The position numbers and the translations under genes were made by a program. A stretch of 64,000 nucleotides of DNA, taken from positions 10,039,282 through 10,103,281 of the forward strand of contig NC_065535.1 in the NCBI RefSeq assembly GCF_932294415.1, written 5' to 3'. Origin of the DNA: Quercus robur. Its lineage: Eukaryota; Streptophyta; Magnoliopsida; Fagales; Fagaceae. This document shows, piece by piece, positions 10,368-60,139 of the stretch. Below the pieces are notes generated by a model. That model searched no databases and was not told where the DNA came from. It was given only the letters and a program-made list of their open reading frames with translations. Each line of letters begins with the position of its first letter. The first letter of the stretch is position 1.

Positions 10368-13300
10368 TCAATTTCCATTATTATTGCCCCTGCTTTTAAT
10401 CTCTCTTGCTCTCTTCCACTTCTCAATGTTTCTCAGCCTAGCATACATCTTTCTAAGCCTACCAAGCTTTTGAGACTCCTGATCAATCACACTAGCTATT
10501 GAGGGGTTCTCACTGAGGATTATTTCATACCCATCTCGGAAATTGTCCAGTCCTGCAGCAAGAAGTTGCCAGAACGAGCCGCCAACGGCTGCACCTCCAC
10601 CACTTGCAGATGAATAGATTGTTGAGTAAACTGTCTTGAAAAGCTCAGTCCTTTGTGTATTATTAGATAACTTCAAAGACTTTCCAAACTCTGCAACTAG
10701 AATTGGTTTGTGAAGGATTTTCTGTGCATCTTGTATATGATCATTAAGCCAACTATTCAAAAATGAGAGTTGGTCTTCATCACTAGAGCCAGGCAACCTG
10801 CTCATCAAACAAAATAAACCTCTTAAGGAAATGATTGTTAGTTAAATGTTAGCAGAAACTTTATTTGATTTAATCCATACCATTGATCAGGGTATGCGTG
10901 GACTGTGGCAAAGTCGATGCCAGGGATTTGATTATTTGTGATGAAATCTGTTCCTACTTGAAAATTAGGATTTGATGGCTGCTTTGATGCGCCGTAAAAC
11001 CCTTCCAGACCAACTTCTAGTAAGTGATTTCTATCTATGGATTTCAGGTAGGATGCCATCTCTGTAATCCAGGCCTGTCAGAGAAACTCATTATAGTAAA
11101 ACCACATATATACCTTTTTTCTTTTTTTTAACTAACTTGCAATTTGATATATTTTTCTTGTTCAGAGTGTGTGACTGGTATTATATGCATGATATAATAA
11201 TAGCCATGTTTCACATTTTCTTATGCTAAAGGCATTAGTGAAGAGGTTAGCTCATCAGGCCTTGTGCAGTTACCAATGCCTTCTATCCAAATTCAAATCC
11301 AAGAATTGTCTCTCAAAGAAAAAATAAGAATAAGGTTATTTAATAGAGAGATGCTACGTCTACAACATTTTTACAACAAATCACAGGTAGTTAGTTATTA
11401 ATGGTTCAAATTTGAAACTAACACTAAAATTGCTTTTTTGCCCTAACAATAACAACCTGTCACTTATAATTTGTTGTAAAAATGTTGTAGACATATCATT
11501 TCTCTATTTAATAATCACTTGTCTCAGTCTCTCATCCCCGCAAAAGTCGAAGTTATATATGCTGAGTATGACCTTTTTTTCTCCAAGGCAATGGTGAAAT
11601 TGGTGAAACTAACTGTTTCTTAACTGATGCTAATGCAAGAACAAAGTCACGGACAATTTTTTTCTTTTTCTTTTCCTAAAATTTATATAATCAACCTGTC
11701 CAAAGCCTAGTTAATAGGTTAGGTTCAATTCCTGCCCCTTCCTGCTTCAGGCAGGTAATCAAAGAAAATCTATTCCATCAATTTCTCTTGGGGCAGTTGA
11801 AGTGTTGAACACTCATGACTTAAGTCCATGATAAGGACCGCTAAGGCGCTAAGCACTAGGTAAATTTAATTTTTATATAAAGCACTGGTTGAATTTAACA
11901 TAATACCAACTCCAATTTAAGAACATGAGGATGAGGTCTCTCTCTCTATGGAAAAAACACAAAATATTGCTGCAAAATACTGTTTTCAAAAGTGACTTTG
12001 GTCAAAGTAAAAAGTATACATGGGAAACACATTTTTAGATTTTAAGAGTCTGATTTGGGAGGTTTTTGCTAACCTGAATGGTCTTTCCTGATTTATCTGA
12101 AGGGCACCTGGGTTCATTCATAAGCTCCCATGCCATTATGGTTGGATCATCTTTGTAAGCAATTCCAGTAAGGCTATTACGCCTTGTAAGAACAGTCTGT
12201 TACACAATACACACACACAAAAAAAAAAAAAAAAGGGGGTTAAATTACATAGAACAAGGAAAATACTAATTTTACCTGTGTCATAACTCATAACTTCTCA
12301 AAATTAAAATTTTCAGGAACAATGGTAATATTACTAATATATTTGTTCGTCTCTAATGTGTAAAGCACTAAATCCGGCCTTTCCCAAAATGAAATAAACC
12401 AAATCTTGAATTTACAACGAAGCATTTAATCTTAGGGAGACTTTTATTTCCTTGTGGGCCAAAGTTGGTAAAAGTAGTCTACCACCATTTTCCAAACTAC
12501 TAGCAAATTAATGTATACTCTTACCACAACCAAAAACACAGCAGAGGAGGAGAATAAGACAGCTAATGTTGGACGATTCATCATTCATTTACCACTAATT
12601 TCAACTTCCTATTTTTGTTCGACCCAACCACCCAATTACTTGGCCAAAAAAAAAAAAAAAGGAAAATGAAAATGAAAAAAAAAAAAAAAATCATACAGAA
12701 CCCGTTTAAAATATGAAACACTTGGTAAATTAATATACAGCTAGCTCAAAAGAGACAGAGAGAGAGGAGGAGAGAGTTACAGTGTAATATACCTTGATAT
12801 GGTTCTTGTAGTACCCCTTCACTACAGAGTTGGTGAAGAAATCATCCTCAGATGTTACAGATTGGCCCTGACCTTTTGCCCAGTCCACATACTGTTTCTT
12901 TCCTCCAAAGTTCTCATAGTTATTCACCAAACTCAACACTACCTTAATATCATATTTTTTAGCTTCAGATATTACAAAATCCAACCCCTACAAACCAAAC
13001 CAAAAAAATAAAAAAGAATGTCAAAAAAAAAGTGCAAAAGAAAAGCAATAACAATTCTAATCAAAACTAACCTGGAACATTTGTTCATTGTAGGAGCCAG
13101 GAGAGTCCTGCAGAGGTCTATATCCTCCATCACTGAAAGCCCAAGTTCTTGCAATTCTAAGACCATGTTTTGTAGCGTCTTGAAAGGCAGATGAAACTTT
13201 GTCTCTCTGAGATGAGTCGGAGGCCACATACATCATCCAGTAGGCATTAAATCCATTTGCATAGTAGGGGCTCCCATTCAATATAAGCTGCACTCCTTTG

Positions 13301-31706: not shown

Positions 31707-34128
31707 ATGAGCAAACGAAAAACAATTGATACATTCTTTAAGAAAAAAGATGTTAGCAATTCAGAAATTAGGACACCTGTGACTGTAGAAACAAATGTTA
31801 ATACTTCGATGCCTGATGAACACCCCTCCAAATGTCCAAAACTTCAATCTGAAGAGATAGATCGTGATCCAGGAACACGTAAACAAATATGTGAATTTCC
31901 TATCAACAAACAAGATGAAATCCGATGAGCTTATCTCATAGAAGGTCCATACCAACCTAAAGATATAGTCTATCCATACAATGATGATACTCATCGTCGT
32001 CGATTTCAACCTTCATGATCTGTTTCACATAAGGATTGGTTGGAATACTCACCTTCAATGGATGCGTTATATTGTCTACCTTGCTACCTTTTTAGTAAGA
32101 AACCAATAGGTTGTCCCGAATCAGATGTATTCATTTCAACAGGTTTTAATAATTGGAAAAAGGTGAAAGATGGAATGAATTGTCCTTTAATTCGTCATGA
32201 AGGGAAAGAACCAAACTTCCCACATAAAAATTGCTGTGAAATGTTGCGAGGATTTAAAGAATTATTCACGACTTATTGACAAGCTAATTGAGAAACAAAC
32301 GTCAAAAGAATTAGAGAATAATCGATTGCGGCTCAAAACCTCAATAGAGTGTGCTCGATGGCTAGCATTCCAAGCTTGTACTTTTAAAGGTCATGATGAA
32401 AGCATTGATTCAAAAAATAAAGGTAATTTTATTGAATTGATAAAATTCACATCAACTTTCAATGACAAAGTAGCTAGTGTTGTCTTGGAAAATGCTCCAG
32501 GAAATGCCAAATATACATCACCCACAATTCAAAAGGAGATTTTGCATATTCTTGCTAGTAATGTGCGAAATGCTATTCGTGAAGAAATTGGGGATGCAAA
32601 ATTCTGCATTCTTGTTGATGAAGCCCGAGATGAGTCGAAGAGAGAGCAAATGGCCATCATTTTGAGATTTGTTGATAAATAAGGTTTCATTAAAGAGCGT
32701 TTCTTTCATGTTGTGCATGTTAGAGACACTACTGCATTGACTTTAAAGAATGAGATATGTACTGTCCTTTCTCGTTACAACCTCCACATTGAAAATATTC
32801 GAGGTCAAGAATATGATAGGGCTAGTAACATGCATGGTGAATGGAATGGATTACAAGCTCTTTTTCTTAAAGACTGCCCATATGCTTATTATGTACATTG
32901 TATGGCTCATAGGTTGCAATTAGCTCTAGTTACAGCATCTAGAGAAGTAAAAGATGTTCATCAATTCTTTGATCATTTGGTTAATATTATCAATATTGTT
33001 GTTGGTTCTAGTAAGCGTAATGATGAATTACAACATGCTCAAGCAGAATAAGTTGAGAATATGATTGCTTCTAATGAAATTGAGACTGGAAGAGGTGCAA
33101 ACCAGATTCGTACTTTGCAACAAGCTAGAGATACTAGGTGGGGATCTCATTTTCAATCTATTTGTAGTTTGATTAAAATGTTTGATACTACTTGCAAAGT
33201 TATTAACACTATTTCTGAGGAAGGGGCTAACTATAAACAACTCGGTGATGCCGAGGGAGCTTATCAGGTATTAACATTATTTGAATTTATTTTAATCTTG
33301 CATTTGATGAAAGAGATAATAGGAATTACTAATGTTCTTTGTCAAGCTTTGCAACAACATTCTCAAGACCTTTTAAATGTCATGCATTTAGTTTCAACTA
33401 CAAAATCACTTATTCAAAAGTTGAGAGATGATGGATGGGAGCCTTTACTTGCTAGTGTTATATCATTTTGTGAGTAACATGAAATTGATATTCCTGATAT
33501 GAATGCTCGTTACACTAAAGGCCGAGGTAGATATCGTCGTCAAGATGATGATTTAACAATGGAACATCATTTTAGAATTGGCATATTTACAGTTGCAATA
33601 GACTTTCAATTGCAAGAATTGAAAAGTAGATTTTGTGAGCTAACAACGGAGCTTGTCATTCTTAGTTCAGCTTTAAATTCCAAGGATGCTTTTAGATTAT
33701 TCAAAATTGTTGATATATGCAATTTGGTTAAGAAATATTATCCTCAAGATTTCACTGAACATGAACAAGAACTTTTGGAGTCTCAATTGCAACATTATGA
33801 GCTTGATGTGATAAAACATCCAGATTTTCAGAATATGAGTACAATTTCCGAGCTATGTAGGGGATTAAAAATTTCAAGAAAGTCTAAAATCTATTTTTTG
33901 ATTGATAGACTTATTCGTCTTGTGTTGACCCTTCCAGTTTCTGCAGCAACTACAGAACGAGCTTTCTCAGCTATGAAGTTGTTAAAAACAAGACTTCGCA
34001 ATAGAATGGAGGATGAGCTTTTGGCAGATAATATGATAGTTTATATAGAGAAGGAAATTGCAGGGAATTTCACTATAGAGATGATAATGGATGAATTTTA
34101 TTCCATGAAAAATCGTCATCAGGCATGA
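31707..34128 (+). pseudogene. hAT transposase pseudogene (TTF-type/ZMYM1-like)
   Basis: The reading frame follows the plant hAT family annotated as zinc finger MYM-type protein 1-like. It begins MSKRKTIDTFFKKK. A TTF-type region follows (WLEYSPSMDALYCLPCYLF, about 32038-32095), then the RNase H-like core with FCILVDEARDESK, and then YYVHCMAHRLQLAL. The hAT dimerisation domain near the end has SAATTERAFSAMKLLKTRLR. It is broken by stops at 31926 (TGA), 32017 (TGA), 32680 (TAA), 33049 (TAA) and 33475 (TAA), and by one frameshift between about 32197 and 32279. Each stop is one C-to-T or G-to-A change from the expected codon (CGA, TGG, CAA). No functional enzyme can be made. The last residues abut a solo LTR, so the true C-terminus may be cut. 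Confidence 0.9.
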
Positions 34129-36363: not shown

Positions 36364-36499
36364 ATGGGTTCAACTTCTGAAACAGTCTGCGTTACTGGAG
36401 CAGCTGGTTTTATTGGATCATGGCTTGTCATAAGACTTCTAGAGCACAATTATACTGTCAGAGCTACTGTGCGCGATCCAGGTTCATTTCTTTTCAAAC

Positions 36500-39900: not shown

Positions 39901-42900
39901 AGTTCAAATTTGATTTTAGGAAGTTACTTAGTAGTAATAACTTAAAATATAGTGCTTAAGATTATTGAATTGGGTAAAAAAAGAAAAGAAAAAAAGGAAC
40001 AAACCCGATTAAAATCATGTTGTTTTAACTTGAACTTAAACCATACTCAACCTAATACATTGTGAGAAGGCTACTATATATCGAATTATATACCTAGAAA
40101 TTTCTATTGATGCATAAATTCTGATTTTTTTTTTTTTTTTTTTTCCTTTTTGGGGGCGTTTTTTGTGTATTGATTTTAGAGAATATGAAGAAGGTGAAGC
40201 ATTTGTTGGAATTGCCTAAGGCATCGACACACCTGACACTGTGGAAGGCAGACCTGAATGAAGAGGGAAGCTTTGATGAAGCAATCAAAGGGTGCAATGG
40301 TGTTTTCCATGTGGCCACACCCATGGACTTCGAGTCCAAGGACCCTGAGGTCTGATTTTGAGTTTTCACCTCAAAAATGGATGCCAAACTCGTTTATTAT
40401 ATCGTGCTAAGTGTGAATAAGAGGAAAATTCTAAAACTACAAACTTTTTTAGAATAAGTTGTCAATAAAAAAATTATGTGTAGTGGGCTATGATAAAAAC
40501 TAGTAAAAATTTGTCACGTTTTTTAAATTTTGAGTAATGTTATACACACAAAAATTTTGACAATTTTTTTCACATTTGTTGAGTTGTCAAGCTTTCATTA
40601 GTTTTCATTTGTATCAGTGATTATTGGTAAGTAAAAAGTGATGTCAGTAGTGGGCCATGATAAATACTAGTAAGAATTTGTCATATTAATAGTTTGTAAA
40701 AATATTTTTAAAAATTTAAGTAATGTTATATGCACAAAAATTTTGACAATTTTTTTTACATCTGTTGAGTTGGCAAGTCTTCACTAGTTTTCATTTGAGC
40801 CCTTCACCGACATCATTTCGTTTACATACTACTAACAATTTGTCACATTAACAGGTGTCAAATTATTTGCGCTAGTAGACTTTCTAAAAAAATTTGTAAC
40901 TGTAACATTATTCTTTTACTAATATTGAACTAATTTTTTTTAATGCCAAATAAGTAAATGAATTGAAACTATCTAAATTCTAAATCATTCCTATTAGAGT
41001 CCTAACTAAATGTTTGCTATGCAGAACGAAGTGATAAAGCCCACGATAAATGGGATGCTAAGCATCATGAAAGCATGTGTGAATGCAAAAACTGTCCGAA
41101 AGCTGGTATTCACATCATCTGCAGCAGCAGTCAGATTTGGAGAGCATGAAAAGCCAGTATATGACGAAAACTGCTGGACTGATGTTGAATTTTGCCGCAA
41201 CAAAAAGATGACTGGATGGGTAAAGTTTTATGTATTTATTTATTTATTATTTTACTCATCAACAAAATTTGGCTCCAAACATTCTATAATCACTAATAGG
41301 AATAGGAAATTTATCTAATTTAGTGCATCAAGTGTATTACACATGACACTAGAGATGTCATTTTCCTATTGGTGGTTAGAAGTCAAACATTTTCCTTTAG
41401 TTATTATCTAATGTTTGTGTTTGGTTTTATTGGGATAGAGCACAAGGCTCCAAATGCATGCTTGGAACCATTGTTCATTACATTCGGTTTGTTTTGAAGT
41501 AAATATTTTTCTATTTTACAGTATGCAGTAAAATATGGTTATACTTGTAAAATATTTTCCATTAACCATAAAATTAATTATAAAAATTTGGTAAAACATT
41601 TTATAAAAATACACAGTTACCCTCTCCCCTTGGGTGGCTAGGCCATCGGTCTAGCACATTGGGCAGTCGGTGTCGGCAGTCAAGTCGTTAAAGACAACAG
41701 AACTACTGGTTCAGTCATCGGAGCTGCTGCTCTGTAGGCTAGTGCCTATGGTCAGGTTGCCAAAACCACTAGTCTAGCAGCCGGAACGGCGATCCAATCA
41801 CCAAACATTCGGCACTAGCAGCTCCGGTGGCTGACTGTCGGTTTTGGTGGTTTGTACTTGAAAAATTTTACATGTCACACTAAACAGCTGAAAATATTTT
41901 ATTTCGAAGCGAACAGAGCATACGTAAGTGATTGGGATAAAGTATATTCTAAGCAATTTGTTTGGGTGCGCAGATGTATTTCGTGTCCAAGTCACTGGCT
42001 GAGCAAGCTGCATGGAAGTTTGCCAAAGAGAACAATTTGGATTTCATCACTATAATCCCACCTCTTGTGGTTGGTTCATTCCTTATGCCATCAATGCCAC
42101 CAAGTCTCATTACTGCTCTTTCTCCTATCACAGGTACATGTTGCCATGCCCTCGTTATCATCGAACATGTAGTTCAATTCACTTGTCCCTTGAAATTTAC
42201 ATTAACATGTTCCATTGCAGGGAATGAAGCTCATTATTCGATATTGAAGCAAACCCAATTTGTTCACTTGGATGACCTCTGCAATGCTCACATTTTTCTG
42301 TATGAGCATCCAAAGGCAGAGGGAAGGTATATATGCTCTGGCTGCGACGCAACCATTCATGACGTCGCAAAATTGCTTAGAGAAAAATTCCCCGAGTACA
42401 ATGTCCCTACAAAGTGAGCCCTCTCAACTTCTCGACATTTTGCATTTGTTTTACTCTTTTTTTCATTTTCACCAACAAGGTGGTATTTATTTAATTTTTA
42501 AATATCACATGTCTTACATCTAAATAAAAATTTGAGGGAACTTGAAGGATTCAATTGGAGAGAATCTTATCCCTAATAAACATAATATCAATGATAAATC
42601 TAAGTGAAACTAATGTCACTTCAACTACAACGGGTCATAAAAATTGTGACAATACTGTCCCTAACATTTTTTCTTCTTCTTTATATACGTGTACAATATA
42701 AGATTATAAGATTGACCATCAGGCTAATTAAGGCTTTGAATACTCAGGTTCAAGGATGTAGATGAGAACTTGGAGATCATCTCCTTCTCTTCCAAAAAGA
42801 TTAAAGAGTTGGGGTTCGGGTTCAAATACAACTTGGAGGACATGTATGTAGGTGCTGTTGAAACATGCCGAGGCAAGGGTTTGCTTCCTCAAGCTGCTGA

Positions 42901-42967
42901 AAAACGTGTTAACGGCACAGGTTTGCTTCCTCCAGCAGCTGAAAAACGTGTTAACGGCACAAGCTGA
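36364..42967 (+). CDS. DFR: Dihydroflavonol 4-reductase paralogue A (DFR-like), six exons
   Basis: DFR reduces dihydroflavonols to leucoanthocyanidins with NADPH in the cytosol, an anthocyanin and tannin step. Exons are 36364-36481, 40180-40349, 41025-41219, 41974-42133, 42221-42413 and 42748-42967, all GT-AG and in frame, giving 351 residues. The Rossmann motif [12 protein letters not shown] is at 10-21, catalytic Ser128 is in FTSSAAA, and Tyr163/Lys167 are in MYFVSK. The substrate-choice position, Asn133 in grape-type DFR, is Arg ([11 protein letters not shown]), and VVGPF of DFR-B is VVGSF. The C-terminus has a 14-residue tandem repeat ([28 protein letters not shown]). Intron 1 is 3.7 kb and holds SINE copies. 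The frame is intact, so it may be functional with altered specificity. It could instead be assigned to a DFR-like reductase of another substrate. The in-frame Met at 36337 is less likely because the family starts at MGS. Confidence 0.9.
36697..36800 (+). mobile_element. SINE copy with internal deletion, DFR-A intron 1
   Basis: Head TTTCAATTAACTTAATTGGT and tail CATAAGTTGAAATTCTCT followed by A-run. It shares both ends with the next two SINE copies but lacks the middle. Confidence 0.5.
36817..36960 (+). mobile_element. tRNA-derived SINE, DFR-A intron 1
   Basis: Contains TTCTAGTTAGCTGAATAAGA, then the family body ACCAAAAACTGATTACTGTC and GATGATAAAAGAGCTATCAT, and the tail ATAGGTTGAAACTTTCTT. 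The A-box region is partly lost. Confidence 0.55.
36965..39560. other. DFR-A intron 1 interior
   Basis: AT-rich intron sequence without coding frames. 37798-37850 has a short GC-rich patch (GGGGCCTTAGGCCTAGACC). 38895-39010 resembles another tRNA-derived SINE (GATCTTAGCTGATTGGCATC, with AGGTTCAAAACC as B box). Nothing else is recognised. Confidence 0.4.
39566..39702 (+). mobile_element. tRNA-derived SINE, best-preserved copy
   Basis: A box-like TTCAATTGGTAAAG and a clear pol III B box AGGTTCAATCC (about 39615-39626), followed by the family body ACTGATTGGTGTCTTAG and TGATGATAAAGAATTATCAG. A remnant of the same family is at about 46857-46990. Confidence 0.65.
39855..39899. repeat. (AT)n plus poly-T in DFR-A intron 1
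   Basis: An alternating TA run followed by about 20 T. Another T run (40125-40144) lies just before the exon 2 acceptor. Confidence 0.8.
40480..40850. repeat. Tandem duplication in DFR-A intron 2, about 167-bp unit
   Basis: Two copies begin GTAGTGGGCTATGATAAA (40480) and GTAGTGGGCCATGATAAA (40647). Each contains CACAAAAATTTTGACAATTT and GTTGAGTTGKCAAG. Confidence 0.7.
41482..41918. mobile_element. MITE-like element in DFR-A intron 3 with GC-rich core
   Basis: Ends TTCGGTTTGTTTTGAAGTAA and the inverted ATTTCGAAGCGAACAGAGC flank a core rich in G+C (41630-41840) that differs sharply from the rest of the intron. TSD is not resolved. The core has no long frame. Confidence 0.45.
42878..42961 (+). 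repeat. 42-bp tandem duplication inside DFR-A exon 6
   Basis: Units 42878-42919 and 42920-42961 differ at only two bases and keep frame. They add 14 residues before the terminal Ser and stop. Confidence 0.9.
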
Positions 42968-44566: not shown

Positions 44567-46561
44567 TTTTTTTTTTTTTTTGGCATAAACAGGAGATATA
44601 TTAGATAAACAGAAGTCTTGCAAACAGAAATATTACAACAGGACTACAGTGCAAGGAAACACATCAACTCACAAACTAAACTGAAGCAAACTAAACACAA
44701 ACCGAACAACACCAACCCGAAGAGAGGAATAGTTGAAACTAAACAAAACACCACTAGATCCTTATTAACCGCGACGACTTCGGGATGAGACAAAACCCAT
44801 GGAGTCCCAATATAAACATTGTCACAAAAAGGTGGGGCATGTATCATACAACACTTCTTTTTCCGATTGAGAAGCATCCCTCTTTGCCAGTAAGTTTGCA
44901 CAACTATTAGCCTCTCTCCATATATGTTCAACGCATGCCTCCCAATCCCTATTGAGGAGCCACCTGCAATCCAAAATCAAGTTAGCAAATTCCATAGGAT
45001 AATCTTCATTAGTATTCAAACATTTGTAAGCAAGAAGAGAATCTATTTAAAGACAAACTCGATGATGCCCCTTGGCCTATGCTCGAGCCAACGCCTTTCT
45101 ATTACCCCACAGTTCAGCCATAGTATTATTGGTGACTCCCAAGTGTAAAGATAAACCCCACAACCATTCTCCATTGGCTGAGTGTGCCACGCCACCCACA
45201 CCAAACTCTCCGAGGTTACCTAACGAGCTTCCGTCTGTATTAAGAGCTACGTTAGGGAAAGGAGCCGGGCTCCACCTAATATATATGTGGGAAGACGGGG
45301 ATGAGTGCCCCGACAGAACGGTGCTAAGGAAGAAAAACTTTGTGGCATGAGATATAGCGTTTTGTTTTAAAACATGATAAGGAATGAATTTTCCTGTAAA
45401 TATCAAAGAATTTTGACCCAACCAAATCGCCCATATGGTAAAAGCGAATATGTTATTCCATGGGATATAACACGAAGGGGAATTAAGTTTGGAATTAAGT
45501 TTACACCAAGCATGGAGCTCAAGCTTGAAAAAATCAGAAATAAGGAAGTGCATAGGAAAGGAGGACCAAATATGATGTGCAAAGTGGCAATCACGTAGAA
45601 CATGAATTGGCATTTCAATCTCATTGCAATGGGTACACACTTGGTCACTCAAGGCAGCATAAGGGAAAATGATCGATTTGGTGGGAATACGATGGTGCGC
45701 ACATTTCCAAACGAAAAATTGAATTTTAGAAGGTATTTTTAACTTCCAAATCCAAGACCATGTTATCGATGTTCGCCATGTAACCTCGTTGGATTTAGGT
45801 AAAAGAGAATGGTAAGTGGATTTTACTGAGCAAATAACCGCATAATGGTCCCAGACACAGTCATCTGTAAGAGTAGCAGGAGAAACAGGAATAGGCAATG
45901 GCTAAGCATAAATAAATTGGGTTATTGTCGATGGCAATACCATACTAAGAGGTGTGAAATCCCATTGGTGAGTGCCAGTGATCATTCTAGCCACCTTAAA
46001 CTCATATTCATGAGGAAGAAGTGGGCCATGAATGAGACCTCAAATTGGTCTCGGGGGCAACCAATGATCTGTCCAAAAATTTATATTATGGCCATTACAA
46101 ATAATCCACCACAGACCACAAAGCCTTCCACGAGTGAGATCTAGTATGCAAAGTGGTTTGCAAGAAATCAGTTGTTCAATAATGCTTTTAGGAGTGAAAT
46201 TTGGCTAATAGAGAATGCGGGTTCCGCCATATTTGCCACACCTGATTCATAAGAAAGGCATCATTGATAGTTTCGAAATCCCTAATACCCAACCCACCAC
46301 AGACCTTAGGCTTGGTGAGCGTGTCCATTTAATAAGGTGCACATGCCGTTCTATCAATGTGTCTCCCCATAAGAAATCTCTTATGAACTTGTCTATAATA
46401 TTCGTAGTGCTCCTAGGAAGGACAGTTGGTCCTCAGTTAATGGGAGGGAATCTCTCATTGTATTCTTAGTCAGCATTGTGATGGCTTTGAGTACTGTCCT
46501 AATGACTAGCTTTGGAGCACTCGATGTTTGGAGGGACTGTGTCCGGGAAATACATGGGATT
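44567..46561 (-). mobile_element. 5'-truncated L1-type LINE with RNase H
   Basis: The plus-strand T run at 44567-44580 is the poly-A tail. Target duplications CAAAACGTGCAT (44555-44566) and CAAAACATGCAT (46562-46573) differ at one base, fixing both ends. Minus-strand translation gives, in order, GGLGIRDFETINDAFLMNQV near 46300, a zinc-finger RT-associated region (WKCAHHRIPTK, CTHCNEIEMPIHVLRDC) and an RNase H domain (NTDGSS, MAELWG). After stops at about 45077 and 45041 in the same frame, it continues to REANSCANLLAKR. The usual CAD is CAN, losing a catalytic Asp. The reverse transcriptase core is absent by truncation. Not functional. Confidence 0.88.
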
Positions 46562-47333: not shown

Positions 47334-47370
47334 CACGTGCGATTACTGGCTGGTAAGTGATAACCACGTG
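47334..47370 (+). promoter_or_regulatory. Two G-boxes upstream of DFR-B
   Basis: CACGTG occurs at 47334-47339 and 47365-47370, about 190-230 nt before the ATG. A nearby CCATCTACCACTACAACTTC (47302-47321) resembles a MYB AC element. G-boxes are known sites for bHLH and bZIP factors, and flavonoid genes are often driven by MYB-bHLH-WD40 complexes. Use in this gene is inference. A TATA-like TATTTATAG is at about 47434. Confidence 0.6.
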
Positions 47371-47561: not shown

Positions 47562-50500
47562 ATGGGGTCAGAGGGTGAGACCGTTTGTGTCACTGGTGCT
47601 GCTGGGTTCATAGGATCATGGCTGATCATGAGACTCCTAGAGCGTGGTTACACTGTCAGAGCCACCGTAAGAGACCCAGGTCTGGTTTTGTATTTCTTTT
47701 CTCAGTTATTACCACAACTTATTTCGATTCTGATGGGATCGACTGTGAGTAATAAAGAATTAAATCAACTTACTACTTTTTCTCTATCATTCGCAAACAC
47801 ATCAAGTCGTGACAGGAACATAAAAAGTCTATTATTCTTAGTGATTTTTGTTTGGTTGTGGTGGGTTGCAGAGAACTTGAAGAAGGTAAAGCATTTGATA
47901 GATTTGCCTAAGGCATCGACGCACCTGACACTGTGGAAGGCTGACCTGAACGAAGAGGGAAGCTTTGATGAAGCAATTAAAGGATGCACCGGTGTTTTCC
48001 ATGTGGCCACGCCCATGGACTTTGAGTCCAAGGACCCTGAGGTAAGGTTTTTGGTGTTGAGCTCAAAAATAAATATGATACAAGAAAAAATGACTTTGCT
48101 TGTTGCTTTTTGTTTCTTTTCCTGCACTTATCAAATATTAATAAAAAGGGCATGATCAATCTTTGTATCTGAAAAGAAAACTATCAATATGTTAATTTGT
48201 TTGTGTGTGTAGGATTTATTTTCGTTAATGAGCAGTGATAATTGGAGTGTCTAGCAGCTGTGGTGGCCGGAATTTAGGATGTAGAAACTAGAAAGTTAGG
48301 CCGGAAGGAATGGGAGAAAAAAAAAGTCATACTCTCGTCTGTTGCTGTCACCAATAATGTTTAGTGGATAATTCCCATGTCCTTTTAATATGGGCCTCAC
48401 GGTGTACTTTGATAAATTGCATGTCCTTTTAAAATGGGCCTCACAGTGTACATTGATGAATTGCATGCCCTTGTACCACAAATTGCTCATGTGCTTCTTA
48501 GTGATAAAGTTGTGTTCTTACGATGAATCCATTATTATATTTTTACCGCTCATAACTTACCATGTGAGCGAGTTGTCACAAAAATTATATCATTTTATGT
48601 GGTCTTAGCATTACTTAGGCGATCAAAGATTTAACAAATGCATTTTACAATTTGTTTTATTAGGTGGTAACTGGTGGGCCAGATGAACAATCCAAAAAAA
48701 AAAAAAAAAATGTTAATATTAATGACTCAGTTGAAATGAAAAATATTGTGTCTAGAATAATATTCATATAAAAATGTTAAAATTAATATAATATTTATTA
48801 AATAAAACTTACAAATTTATGTGATAAGAAACGGCATGGTTCAACCACTTAATAAATTTTAAACTTTTAAATTGCTTTTTTTATGATGGGAAATGCTAAA
48901 ATTATTACAAATTTTACATCTTAAACTTACAAACTGGCATGTCAATAAATGTGATTAGTAGATTTCAACTACCTAATAAATGAATGAATTGTTTTGTGGT
49001 GATTGGTGACACACTAGTTTGTAAACTTTATGTAGTAAATTTTTTAGTATCCCTAGAATCACTTTTTTTGTGATTAGTTTGTAAGTTCTATGTAATAAAT
49101 TTTTTTAGTATGCCTACCCTAGCTAATTAACAAATTGTATTAATCATTCCAATAATAAGGGGTGGTCAAATGGTAAAAATACAATAACTTTTTATTTGTT
49201 TTTTTACAGAAACCTTATAAATGTGTAATTTTTTTATTCATACGATAAAGTAGTAATAAAGAAATTTATTTATTTGGTTATTAACATGGAATGGTTCATT
49301 TTTTTTGTCATATTAGTTTTTTATAACTATAAAAAAAAAAAAAAAATGCTCTATAAAATAATAGAAAATATGTTTGGTTGGATTAGAGGGGATTAGAGGA
49401 TCACCACACACAACAACAACAACAAAAAGGGAAATGTGAACACTTAGATGATCACCCTATTTTTCAGTACAGTTTAAGAGGAGAACCCAAAAAAATCAGT
49501 AATAAGTGCCATTTAAAACCCATTCAGGGCCGGCTCAAGGCCTAGGCAAGTTAGGCCTAGGCCTAAGGCCCCACCAAAAAACAAAAATTTTCTTATGAAA
49601 AAAGGCCCCATTTTTCATAGTTAAAGGCCCAAAATTTTAAATATTTTCTAAAGGTTGTACATTTTTTTTATTAGTGATGTTAAGGGTATTACAAATTTTA
49701 CTATTGACTTACAAATTGTCATGTTATTAATCACAAATAAGTGATATAAACATTCATTAGTTAAATTGATGAAGTTCATCAATGAGAGACAGTGTCACAT
49801 TATATTTTGAAAATTTTATAGTGCTTTTAATTAGTGCATTTTTCTTTTTCATTTCTATTAATGTTCTCAAATTACGAGACCAATAGAACCTTAACTCAAT
49901 TGAAACCCTAAAATATTTCAAAAAGATGTTGCAAATGTGTTAAATCATCAATTATAAATTAATCTCCCTTGATAGTTTGAGACTTTGATTTTTGTAAACT
50001 AATATCGTACAAAGTCACACACCAAATAATATCTATCTCTCTCTCTTAAAATCAAAATATAAAATTAAAAATTAGATTACAACTTTATTTAACTATGCAT
50101 CGTCTTATATCCAAAATAAAGTATCTTTTTCAATCGCAATATATTTTTATTTCTTTTTATTAATATTTATAATTAAACTATGATATTCAATTCTCTATAT
50201 GAAATTAACATTAGTCTAGTTGGTATTATTTATGTATTTAATGTATCAAATTAACTTTAATTTGATTAGTATTAAATAATTTTGTTTAATTAATATTTAC
50301 ATATTAAAGGCCCCGCATAAATTTTTCGCCTTAGGCCCCAAATTATGTTGGGCCGCCCCTGAACCCATTGGCACATGAATTTCCAACTTTTTGACCTACA
50401 CCTACTCTACATTCATTCAATTTTGAATATTTGCATTGCAGAATGAAGTGATAAAGCCAACGATAAATGGTGTGTTAAGCATCATGAAAGCTTGTGTCAA

Positions 50501-51671
50501 TGCAAAAACTGTTCGAAGACTAGTATTCACATCCTCTGCAGGAACTGTCAATGTTGAAGAACACATAAAGCCTGTTTATGATGAAAATTGCTGGACTGAT
50601 GTTGAATTTGTCAGGAAGAAAAAGATGACTGGATGGGTTAGCATTCATTTCATTTCGTTTTGTCTCTCTTTTGTTATATTTATAAATTTTCCCTTAAAGA
50701 TACCATTGTTCTGGTTTGTGTCTAATTTTGTTGGCAAACTAAGTGATGAATGATATGAGTAATTCTTCTGTGTTCAGATGTATTTCGTGTCCAAGACACT
50801 TGCTGAACAAGCCGCATGGAAGTTTGCAAAAGAAAACAATTTGGATTTCATCAGTATTATACCACCACTTGTGGTTGGTCCATTTATCATGTCGTCAATG
50901 CCGCCAAGTCTTATAACCGGACTTTCTCCTATCACTGGTACATACTACATATTGCTATTGCCATTGTGACATTGTACTAAAATCATGAAACTTAATTACT
51001 TAACCTATATAAAATCTAGGTAAAATCCTTTAGGTGTTGGTTAAATTCAATAATATGACTGCATTGGCCAATGCAACCACGTATATGGTTTAATTTAATT
51101 TTAAAGCATAAGGAACAATACCTAAATGACTATATCTAAGTTTTGTCATAAAGACTAACTTGTTTAATTACAGGTAATGAAGCTCATTACTCAATCATAA
51201 AGCAAGGCCAATTTGTTCACTTGGATGATCTCGTGAATTCTCATATATATTTGTATGAGAATCCAAAGGCAGAGGGAAGATATATATGCTCCCGGACCGA
51301 AGCTACCATTCATGACATTGCAAAATTGCTTAGAGAAAATTTTCCAGAGTATAATGTTCCTACAAAGTAAGCCCTTTTTAATTCCCACCGTATTTGACAT
51401 TTTGCAAACATTATTTTTCTTCTTAGTTTATGTTTTCTGGTACAACTGTGAGCTTAGCCATTGAGACAATTAAGCATTGATTCTCAGGTTCAAAGGTATC
51501 GATGACAACTTGGAGATTGTCAGTTTCTCTTCCAAAAAGCTTACGGACTTGGGGTTTGAGTTCAAATACAACTTGGAGGAAATGTTTGTAGGAGCTGTTG
51601 AAACATGCCGAGCCAAGGGATTGCTTCCTGCTGCTGGTGAAAACAATGTCACTGGCACGAAAAAAGATTGA
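47562..51671 (+). CDS. DFR: Dihydroflavonol 4-reductase B (DFR), six exons
   Basis: Same reaction and pathway as paralogue A, here with the canonical features. Exons are 47562-47679, 47872-48041, 50442-50636, 50778-50937, 51174-51366 and 51488-51671. All introns are GT-AG and no frame break occurs; the product is 339 residues, a normal DFR length. The NADP-binding [12 protein letters not shown] is followed by [13 protein letters not shown] and the DFR hallmark [17 protein letters not shown]. The specificity segment is [19 protein letters not shown] with Asn133. The catalytic set is Ser128, Tyr163 and Lys167 (MYFVSK). Intron 2 (2.4 kb) hosts an 837-bp hAT element with intact splice sites. It lies 4.6 kb downstream of DFR-A in the same orientation, so the pair is a tandem duplication. 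Anthocyanin or proanthocyanidin synthesis is the expected role. Translation from MGSEGE matches family starts. Confidence 0.95.
48376..48463. repeat. 44-bp tandem duplication in DFR-B intron 2
   Basis: Two units starting CATGTCCTTTTAA and containing TGGGCCTCACRGTGTAC. Confidence 0.8.
49525..50361. mobile_element. Non-autonomous hAT element (837 bp) in DFR-B intron 2
   Basis: Ends CAGGGCCGGCTCAAGGCC and the inverted GGGCCGCCCCTG, with an exact 8-bp TSD AACCCATT (49517-49524 and 50362-50369). The subterminal regions are rich in GGCCTAGG/GGGGCC motifs. There is no transposase. It ends 80 bp before the exon 3 acceptor. Confidence 0.88.
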
Positions 51672-57897: not shown

Positions 57898-60139
57898 TTA
57901 TTTATATATATTTTTTGATAAGCTGCATATTCATTCAAAGAAATTACGAAGGAAAACAAGAGGGGGTATCTCCCTTACAAACTACCTCAATGGCAGGGGG
58001 GAGCATACCTTCAGAAAAACAAAATGATTGCATATAGTTCAAAGTAAATCTTGCAGGTACATGGGCTGCAAAGTTGCTACTCCTACGCACCCAACCAATC
58101 TACAAGAAGAAAAACAAGAAGATAAATTACGGATATTGAGAATGGGTGTGTCAACAGACCATCTAGGAGTCTGATCAGGGTGGTTCAAAGCATCAAAGCA
58201 TATTTTTGAGTCTCCCTCGAACATGATAGAGTACCAGCGGTTTTGGATGGCGAGATGGAAAGCCCAAAGAAGTGCTAGAGATTCTGCTTGTAAAGAAGGA
58301 CCGAGTTGATGAACTTTTCCCCAAATGAAGAGCACCTTTCCAAGGTGATTTCGGGCAACCACAGCTAGAGCAGACTTTGATGAGTTTAAGGCCGCATCCA
58401 CATTAATTTTGATATGATCTGGCAGAGGAGGTGATCAGGAGGTAGAGCATGATCTCTAGATGGGGTTGCTAGTTGGGGCGAAAACTTTAGAGATTTCTTG
58501 AAACCTTGCTTGCACACGAACCTTGGCATTAATCAGGTTAGCTTGCTCTTGTTTGAAAAGCTTGTGGTTTCTAGAATTCCAGATTTCATCCATGATGAGT
58601 GCCATGTTTAGAGTTATAGTCCATTGCTCATTTGCTGGAATTGGTGCATCAAGTGGGTTAATGATGAACTTTAAGATGTCTTCACTTGAGGTAAGTGGTG
58701 CAGTATCAATCCTGATGCCCCACCCTACAACTGCCCAAAGGGCTCTGGCAAATTGACATTCTAAAAAAAGGTGGGTGCTGCTCTCAACTTCATTGTTGCA
58801 AAAAGTGCAAGCCAAGTCTATATGTTGTATTCTTCGTTGGAGATTCTCTCTTGTGGGAATGACATTGGCTCCGATCCTCCATAAAAACATTTTCAGGCGT
58901 TCCAAAAGCCTCGCTTTCCATAAATTCTTCCAAAGGGAGTTAACTGGGCTTCCATCATGGACCTAGGTAAAAGCCACACCATGAACAGATTTTACATTAA
59001 AAGTTCCCTTGGGGTCAGGTAGCCAAATGAGCCTATCTTGCTTGGGTGGTGTGGGAATGGGATTGAGAGGATTTCCTATGCAACTTTAGCTGAAAAGACT
59101 TCCTTTACCATGTCTTCATCCCAAGCTTTAAAGGTGTGGTCAATGAGATGGTGTGCCTTGATGGGGAGCTGCAGGTAGTCATTTATCCCTGGCTTCGGCT
59201 TAAAATCCTCAATCCAAGGCACCCACGGATTAGCCCATATGTTAATGGATTTCCCATCTCCTAACAGGAAGCAAGCTCATTTTTCAATCAACTTCTTTGC
59301 TCTCTCTATCACACGCCATGTAGGAGAAGCAAATTTACTTGGCTTTAATCTAAGCCAATCCTCCTTAACTTTATACTTCGACCGCAACACTTCCATACAT
59401 AGGCTTTGTTTGCCAGAAGCCACAATCCAAGCAAACTTGGCTAGAAGTGCTTCATTAACTTCTCTTGTTTTTTTGAAGCCGAGACCACCTACACATCTTG
59501 GTTGACATAGCTTGTTCCACCCTTTCCAAGCAATGTATCTACCTTCCTTCTCTTTGGGTTTCCACCAAAACCTTCTAGAGAGCAAGTCCAATTTGTCACA
59601 ATTCCTAACAGGTACATCAAAGGAGAAAGAGGGTAAATAGGTATAGCTTGGGTTACCGAGTTTATAAGTGTGCATCTACCTGCCCAAGATAAGCAATTGC
59701 TCCTCCAACCTGTTAATTTTGCCTCCAACTTGTCTTGCAAAAATTTAAAATCCTTAGAGGGTGATTTGGACAAAACAATGGTGTTCCAAGGTACACTGCA
59801 TCTTTTTTGAGTCTTTTCATGTTAAGTTGCTGCCTTATTGCTCTTCTGCTATTAGGGCCAGTATGCTTTGAGAAGAAAATCCCAGATTTGCCTCTATTAA
59901 TGCTTTGCCTTGACCATGTGCAGTACTTTTCTAGGCAATCAGCAAGCCTTTTTGCAACATTTCTTGTTGCTTTGGAAAAAAGGACTATGTCATCCGCATA
60001 CATAATGTGAGTTATGGCAGGTCCCCTTATGCTTGGTTTAGCACCACTAATGTTGCCATCTCTAAGCTCCTTACCCAGCATTCTTGATTGAACTTCCTGA
60101 CCCAAAATGAATAAATAAGGCGACAATGGGTCGCCTTAG
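57898..60139 (-). mobile_element. L1-type LINE relic (RT to RNase H)
   Basis: Minus-strand reading gives, in order: reverse transcriptase palm (GDPLSPYLFILGQ, then THIMYADDIVLFSKATR with the YADD core, about 59990-60120); the RT thumb/connection (LTGWRSNCLSWAGR, then RFWWKPKEKEGRYIAWKGW); GGLGFKKTREVNEALLAKF; a zinc-finger region (MFLWRIGANVIPTRENLQRR, CTFCNNEVESSTHLFLECQF); and an RNase H part (AESLALLWAFHLA, FEGDSKICFDAL). At least three frameshifts separate these. The 5' side stops abruptly at an (AT)n run at 60145, so the endonuclease part is missing. The A-rich 3' end is near 57898. Confidence 0.88.

What the first reader, a model, noticed from the sequence alone, without database searches (positions are those of the whole stretch)
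41025..41219. DFR-A has Arg at the substrate-specificity position (Asn133)
In exon 3 the conserved TVNVEEH of DFR-B becomes AVRFGEH in DFR-A, placing Arg at residue 133. Asn or Asp at this site is known to govern which dihydroflavonol is accepted. Ser128, Tyr163 and Lys167 are retained and the whole frame is intact, so this is not simple decay. A bulky cation in the B-ring pocket suggests a changed substrate. The linked change VVGPF to VVGSF is also in the pocket-side half.
Basis: partly seen in the sequence, partly recalled or inferred. Interest (0 to 1): 0.72.

Follow-up and report, generated by a model that had tools for sequence, protein, structure and literature searches.

The report
Arg-type DFR beside ordinary Asn-type DFR
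This plant gene is an intact copy of the pigment and tannin enzyme DFR with arginine at the residue that chooses its substrate, a type already reported in ferns, beech and cork oak that most likely still makes common pigment precursors but refuses the most hydroxylated one.

Summary
Exon 3 of DFR-A is 41025-41219 and residue 133 is Arg (AGA, 41133-41135); tandem neighbour DFR-B has Asn. DFR-A is complete: six GT-AG exons, 351 aa, catalytic residues kept. A and B are the only true DFRs that exon 3 finds in the 786-Mb genome; the next hit is ANR-like, 49% identical. Pairwise dN/dS is 0.15 at dS 0.64, and A is not significantly faster than B.

Fern "Arg-type" DFRs reduce dihydrokaempferol and dihydroquercetin but not dihydromyricetin, and Arabidopsis N133R loses dihydromyricetin. 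R133 DFRs are already named for Fagus sylvatica and Quercus suber; 14 of 745 surveyed homologues are Arg-type, 8 from ferns. Best reading: a working DFR narrowed to less hydroxylated dihydroflavonols, with DFR-B the generalist. Activity and expression are untested here; a weak or inactive enzyme is the main rival.

The parts
36364..36481 (+). DFR-A exon 1 (start codon, Gly-rich stretch [11 protein letters not shown])
40180..40349 (+). DFR-A exon 2
41025..41219 (+). DFR-A exon 3, with the substrate-specificity stretch AVRFGEH
41133..41135 (+). codon AGA, Arg133
41974..42133 (+). DFR-A exon 4 (Tyr163, Lys167, P196S)
42221..42413 (+). DFR-A exon 5 (Gln227)
42748..42967 (+). DFR-A exon 6 with stop
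42878..42961 (+). 42-nt in-frame tandem duplication, 2.0 copies, adding 14 residues near the C terminus of DFR-A
47562..51671 (+). DFR-B, Asn133 type, 339 aa; exons 47562-47679, 47872-48041, 50442-50636, 50778-50937, 51174-51366, 51488-51671

Best explanation
DFR-B would carry the dihydromyricetin flow. Shown here: the sequence, an intact gene, retained catalytic residues, low pairwise dN/dS, two true DFR loci found by exon 3. Inferred: activity, substrate range, division of labour.
For: Complete gene and retained residues; best solved relative is grape DFR 2c29, 78.5% identity; codon model dN/dS 0.148, dS 0.636, 2dlnL 108.7 against dN/dS of 1; no significant rate excess of A with three outgroups. 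Published: fern Arg-type DFRs active on dihydrokaempferol and dihydroquercetin, not dihydromyricetin, and AtDFR N133R without dihydromyricetin product; R133 DFR sequences in Fagus sylvatica and Quercus suber; authors who propose that tandem duplication is linked to the rise of the DFR types.
Against: No enzyme assay or RNA evidence was available. A differs from B at four more of the residues 130-135 (G130A, T131A, V134F, E135G), changes that the single mutant N133R lacks. The fern Arg-type DFRs lie outside the DFR clade in the tree of PMC11356453, and in PMC12027299 Arg-type homologues lie mostly in Group I, whereas Asn and Asp types are in Group IV, so the analogy is by residue, not by descent. 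Lotus DFR1 (Ser133) and Ipomoea DFR-A (His133) are reported to lack DFR activity. Pairwise dN/dS averages both branches and does not isolate A.
Confidence: 0.6

Rival explanations
1. DFR-A is a stable but weak or inactive DFR-like protein, kept for another role such as regulation or complex formation, or only recently losing function.
For: Lotus japonicus DFR1 (Ser133) and Ipomoea nil DFR-A (His133) are reported without DFR activity; five changes at 130-135 and P196S lie in or near the substrate region; the C terminus has a 42-nt duplication.
Against: The catalytic residues are kept, and pairwise dN/dS is low at dS 0.64; fern Arg-type enzymes and AtDFR N133R are active, as is Anthurium DFR with Ser133.
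Confidence: 0.25
2. DFR-A has taken a different substrate (for example a flavanone or a non-flavonoid ketone), a true neofunctionalisation.
For: A bulky cation and four neighbouring changes in the substrate-specificity stretch.
Against: 78-79% identity to grape DFR and 9m3k and no significant acceleration; known Arg-type DFRs use ordinary dihydroflavonols.
Confidence: 0.1
3. DFR-A is a dying copy or pseudogene.
For: Long intron 1 (3.7 kb) and transposon pieces nearby; no expression data.
Against: No frameshift, inner stop or lost splice site in six exons; pairwise dN/dS 0.15, exon values 0.06 to 0.42.
Confidence: 0.05

Closest known systems
R133 DFR sequences of Fagus sylvatica and Quercus suber (PMC11356453)
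   Same: Angiosperm DFR with Arg at position 133; the authors call for study of residues beyond Asn, Asp and Ala there
[quoted passage not shown]
   Same: Arg at 133; DFR activity shown in vitro, and DeDFR2 raised anthocyanin in Arabidopsis tt3-1
   Different: Fern enzymes are 43.48% and 46.34% identical to AtDFR and lie outside the DFR clade; DFR-A is 78.5% identical to grape DFR
Grape DFR, PDB 2c29
   Same: Aligned over residues 1-335 without gaps; Ser128, Tyr163, Lys167, Gln227 the same
   Different: Grape has Gly130, Thr131, Asn133, Ile134, Gln135 and VVGPF where A has VVGSF
DFR-B of this window
   Same: Same exon plan, 283 of 339 aligned residues identical
   Different: Asn133; no 42-nt duplication; none of five introns nor the 1.5 kb upstream aligned with A's by blastn at E 0.001

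Membership tests
Dihydroflavonol 4-reductase (DFR, SDR108E) | Closest to solved DFRs rather than ANR, CCR or vestitone reductase | tested here: met
   2c29 616 bits, 9m3k (deposited as ketoreductase) 612, switchgrass DFR 8fem 494; ANR 2rh8 316, vestitone reductase 288, CCR 4r1s 240
Dihydroflavonol 4-reductase (DFR, SDR108E) | Gly-rich NADPH motif and Ser-Tyr-Lys triad (roles recalled) | tested here: met
   [11 protein letters not shown]; Ser128, Tyr163, Lys167
Dihydroflavonol 4-reductase (DFR, SDR108E) | Glu equivalent to Gerbera Glu145, whose change to Leu gave a non-functional enzyme | tested here: met
   Glu144 in A and B, equated by the same offset of one as N134 to N133; Gerbera result as told in PMC11356453
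Dihydroflavonol 4-reductase (DFR, SDR108E) | Reduces at least one dihydroflavonol | not testable with these tools
   needs an enzyme assay
Arg-type DFR | Arg at residue 133 (134 in other papers) | tested here: met
   AGA at 41133-41135, residue 133
Arg-type DFR | Uses dihydrokaempferol and dihydroquercetin, not dihydromyricetin | not testable with these tools
   published for two fern enzymes and, as to dihydromyricetin, for AtDFR N133R
Pseudogene | Broken frame or splice sites, or dN/dS near 1 | tested here: not met
   (pairwise dN/dS; a branch test was not possible)

The most novel reading that the evidence does not exclude
DFR-A belongs to an old, retained Arg-type DFR lineage of the beech and oak family that arose beside the generalist copy and converged on the fern Arg-type substrate range, or went beyond it to another carbonyl substrate through the added changes at 130, 131, 134 and 135, splitting tannin or pigment flow between two neighbouring genes.
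Probability: 0.25. Interest if true: 0.5.

Novelty: new member of a known kind. Interest (0 to 1): 0.27.

Why it matters
If DFR-A is active, one genome holds an Arg-type and an Asn-type DFR side by side, a natural pair for testing how residue 133 directs the flow between pelargonidin, cyanidin and delphinidin type products and condensed tannins. PMC11356453 states that residues beyond Asn, Asp and Ala at 133 deserve study, directly after naming R133 of Fagus sylvatica and Quercus suber, so an assay of this pair would answer a stated question. It extends known work rather than opening a new kind.

Tried and rejected
Missing exon 1: rejected, exon 1 is at 36364-36481. Gene conversion from an ANR gene at TSSAAAV: the ANR-like locus L003 also reads AAAV, but its DNA shares only runs of a few bases with A there (alignment); not supported. 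Significant clustering of changes: 1372 of 20000 permutations reach it; not claimed. Faster evolution of A: Tajima counts A against B are 25 to 15 (grape, chi-square 2.5), 18 to 20 (9m3k, 0.11) and 19 to 12 (switchgrass, 1.58), none significant; maximum-likelihood branches are 0.129 (A) and 0.081 (B). In that five-sequence tree the split that joins A with B has only 70% ultrafast bootstrap support, so a duplication older than the grape split is not excluded. A true branch-specific dN/dS needs outgroup DNA, and I had no plant DNA outside this genome. Exon 1 dS (2.1) is close to saturation. A sigma-70 promoter scan is not suited to plants and was ignored. NCBIfam gave 22 SDR-type models, each below its cut-off. 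Paper searches: N133R with dihydroflavonol gave 0 papers, but it also missed PMC7194404, which prints AtDFR with N133R as a superscript, so that zero means nothing; Arg-type DFR gave 3; others. Structure prediction was not asked for, because the tool takes proteins that the DNA gives letter for letter and this one is spliced.

Full report
What is there. The window holds two DFR genes in tandem on the + strand. DFR-A has six exons (36364-36481, 40180-40349, 41025-41219, 41974-42133, 42221-42413, 42748-42967), DFR-B six (47562-47679, 47872-48041, 50442-50636, 50778-50937, 51174-51366, 51488-51671). Boundaries were tried one base either way; for each gene a single combination gave GT-AG introns and an open frame, of 351 and 339 aa. 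The interval of the finding is exactly exon 3 of A. Residue 133 is Arg (AGA, 41133-41135) in A and Asn (AAT) in B.

Context of the residue. In the five proteins aligned (A, B, grape 2c29, 9m3k, switchgrass 8fem) position 133 reads R, N, N, D, N. A alone of the five has Ala130, Arg133, Phe134 and Gly135; at 131 it shares Ala with switchgrass. Ser128, Tyr163, Lys167 and Gln227 are kept in A, though switchgrass has Thr at 128; Glu144 is kept too. The catalytic roles of the triad and the contact role of Gln227 are recalled.

Is it decaying? Pairwise codon model over the 336 colinear codons: dN 0.094, dS 0.636, dN/dS 0.148, 2dlnL 108.7 against 1; by exon 0.057, 0.108, 0.154, 0.067, 0.143 and 0.424, with exon 1 dS near saturation. 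Of 56 residue differences 16 fall to A, 13 to B and 27 are unresolved by the three outgroups. Tajima counts show no significant excess in A. Sharing dN by the protein branch lengths and dS equally gives about 0.18 for the A branch; this is my rough arithmetic, not a branch test. None of five introns, nor 1.5 kb upstream, aligned between A and B (blastn, E 0.001), in line with an old duplication. The last exon of A carries a 42-nt in-frame duplication. Very recent loss of function cannot be excluded without RNA.

How old is the pair? A and B are 83.5% identical to each other, 78.5% and 81.5% to grape. The tree joins A with B with only 70% support, so whether the duplication is younger than the split from grape is likely but not shown.

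How many DFRs? The window lies in an unnamed assembly of 785,749,727 bases in 42 contigs. Exon 3 DNA of A finds 2 places, A and B. Its peptide finds 25 matches (E up to 0.001) among 42 candidates; after A (100%) and B (85%) the next is 49%, locus L003, which by eye reads like the grape anthocyanidin reductase shown. In my re-alignment 23 of the 25 loci were hit by the A peptide and 22 gave a residue at 133; Arg occurs in A only. With the B peptide 19 were hit and 18 gave a residue, again Arg in A only. In the distant paralogues the residue depends on gap placement: five of them read Asn against B but not against A. So A and B are the only true DFRs that this search found. The tool warns that only best candidates are scored and that common words are skipped, and the whole-protein search did not complete.

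What is known. PMC7194404 (abstract, the first of two parts of the Results, the mutagenesis section and the Discussion read) named the Arg-type DFR: fern DeDFR1 and DeDFR2 reduce dihydrokaempferol and dihydroquercetin, not dihydromyricetin; AtDFR N133R gives about half the dihydroquercetin product of AtDFR and no dihydromyricetin product; the authors argue from the grape structure that Asn133 meets both B-ring hydroxyls of dihydroquercetin and that Arg can still meet the 4'-hydroxyl. PMC12027299 (abstract, first part of the Results, section 3.5, Discussion, legends, passages) counts 207 Asn, 70 Asp, 14 Arg and 454 other among 745 homologues; eight of nine fern sequences are Arg-type, so six Arg-type sequences remain for eudicots (my subtraction). 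The survey used a 45% identity threshold, and its Arg types lie mostly in Group I, fewer in III and IV, so some may be DFR-like rather than DFR. The authors link the types to tandem duplication. Quercus and Fagaceae have 0 occurrences in its main text, and its supplement was not open to me. PMC11356453 (abstract, first part of section 3, sections 10, 11 and 16, passages) names R133 among DFR sequences of Fagus sylvatica and Quercus suber; I saw no assay of them in what I read. It lists Ser133 and His133 copies without DFR activity, and active DFRs with Ser133 (Anthurium) and Val133 (cranberry, buckwheat). PMC13136753 (passages) repeats the Arg-type preference. PMC9603646 (passages) reports cyanidin and less delphinidin glucoside in Quercus aliena leaves, which suggests, without proving, that dihydromyricetin is reduced in oaks; the passages say nothing on two DFR copies. 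PMC9250652 (passages) shows that residues just before the substrate-binding region can switch DFR activity in tea.

Reading. DFR-A is best filed as a DFR by sequence and as Arg-type by residue. Its likely action is that of a DFR narrowed to dihydrokaempferol and dihydroquercetin; this is inference by analogy. Whether A is the ortholog of the Fagus and Quercus suber R133 sequences was not tested.

Verdict. The useful remainder is a clean natural pair, Arg-type and Asn-type in tandem with low dN/dS between them, ready for assay.

Noticed in passing
window 42878-42961: 42-nt tandem duplication in the last exon of DFR-A adds a second [14 protein letters not shown] near the C terminus, in frame.
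   Followed up: partly
window 32191-32682 and 33478-34128, + strand: Open frames with DUF4371 and hAT dimerisation domains, likely pieces of a hAT transposase, ending about 2.2 kb upstream of DFR-A exon 1.
   Followed up: no
window 45077-45901 and 58456-58962, - strand: Two zf-RVT (reverse transcriptase zinc-binding) open frames, likely LINE pieces, the first of them between DFR-A and DFR-B.
   Followed up: no
window 10368-10841, - strand: Open frame matching the C-terminal part of mannan endo-1,4-beta-mannosidase (9m20, E 1.7e-35); no Pfam match at 0.001.
   Followed up: partly
window 40519-40611 and 40705-40797: 93-nt direct repeat, 88% identical, 186 apart, in intron 2 of DFR-A.
   Followed up: no
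window 48376-48472: 44-nt tandem repeat, 2.2 copies, in intron 2 of DFR-B.
   Followed up: no
window 47334-47370: Two G-box CACGTG sites at -228 and -197 from the DFR-B start codon; in the 1.5 kb before DFR-A there is one, at -1062, besides five CACATG or CATGTG sites, so the two genes may be regulated differently.
   Followed up: no
genome contig C2, 16.32-16.37 Mb (L005, L007, L010, L016, L018) and C37, 55.26-55.27 Mb (L004, L006, L011): Clusters of reductase-like paralogues elsewhere in the genome, 36-48% identical to the exon 3 peptide of DFR-A.
   Followed up: no
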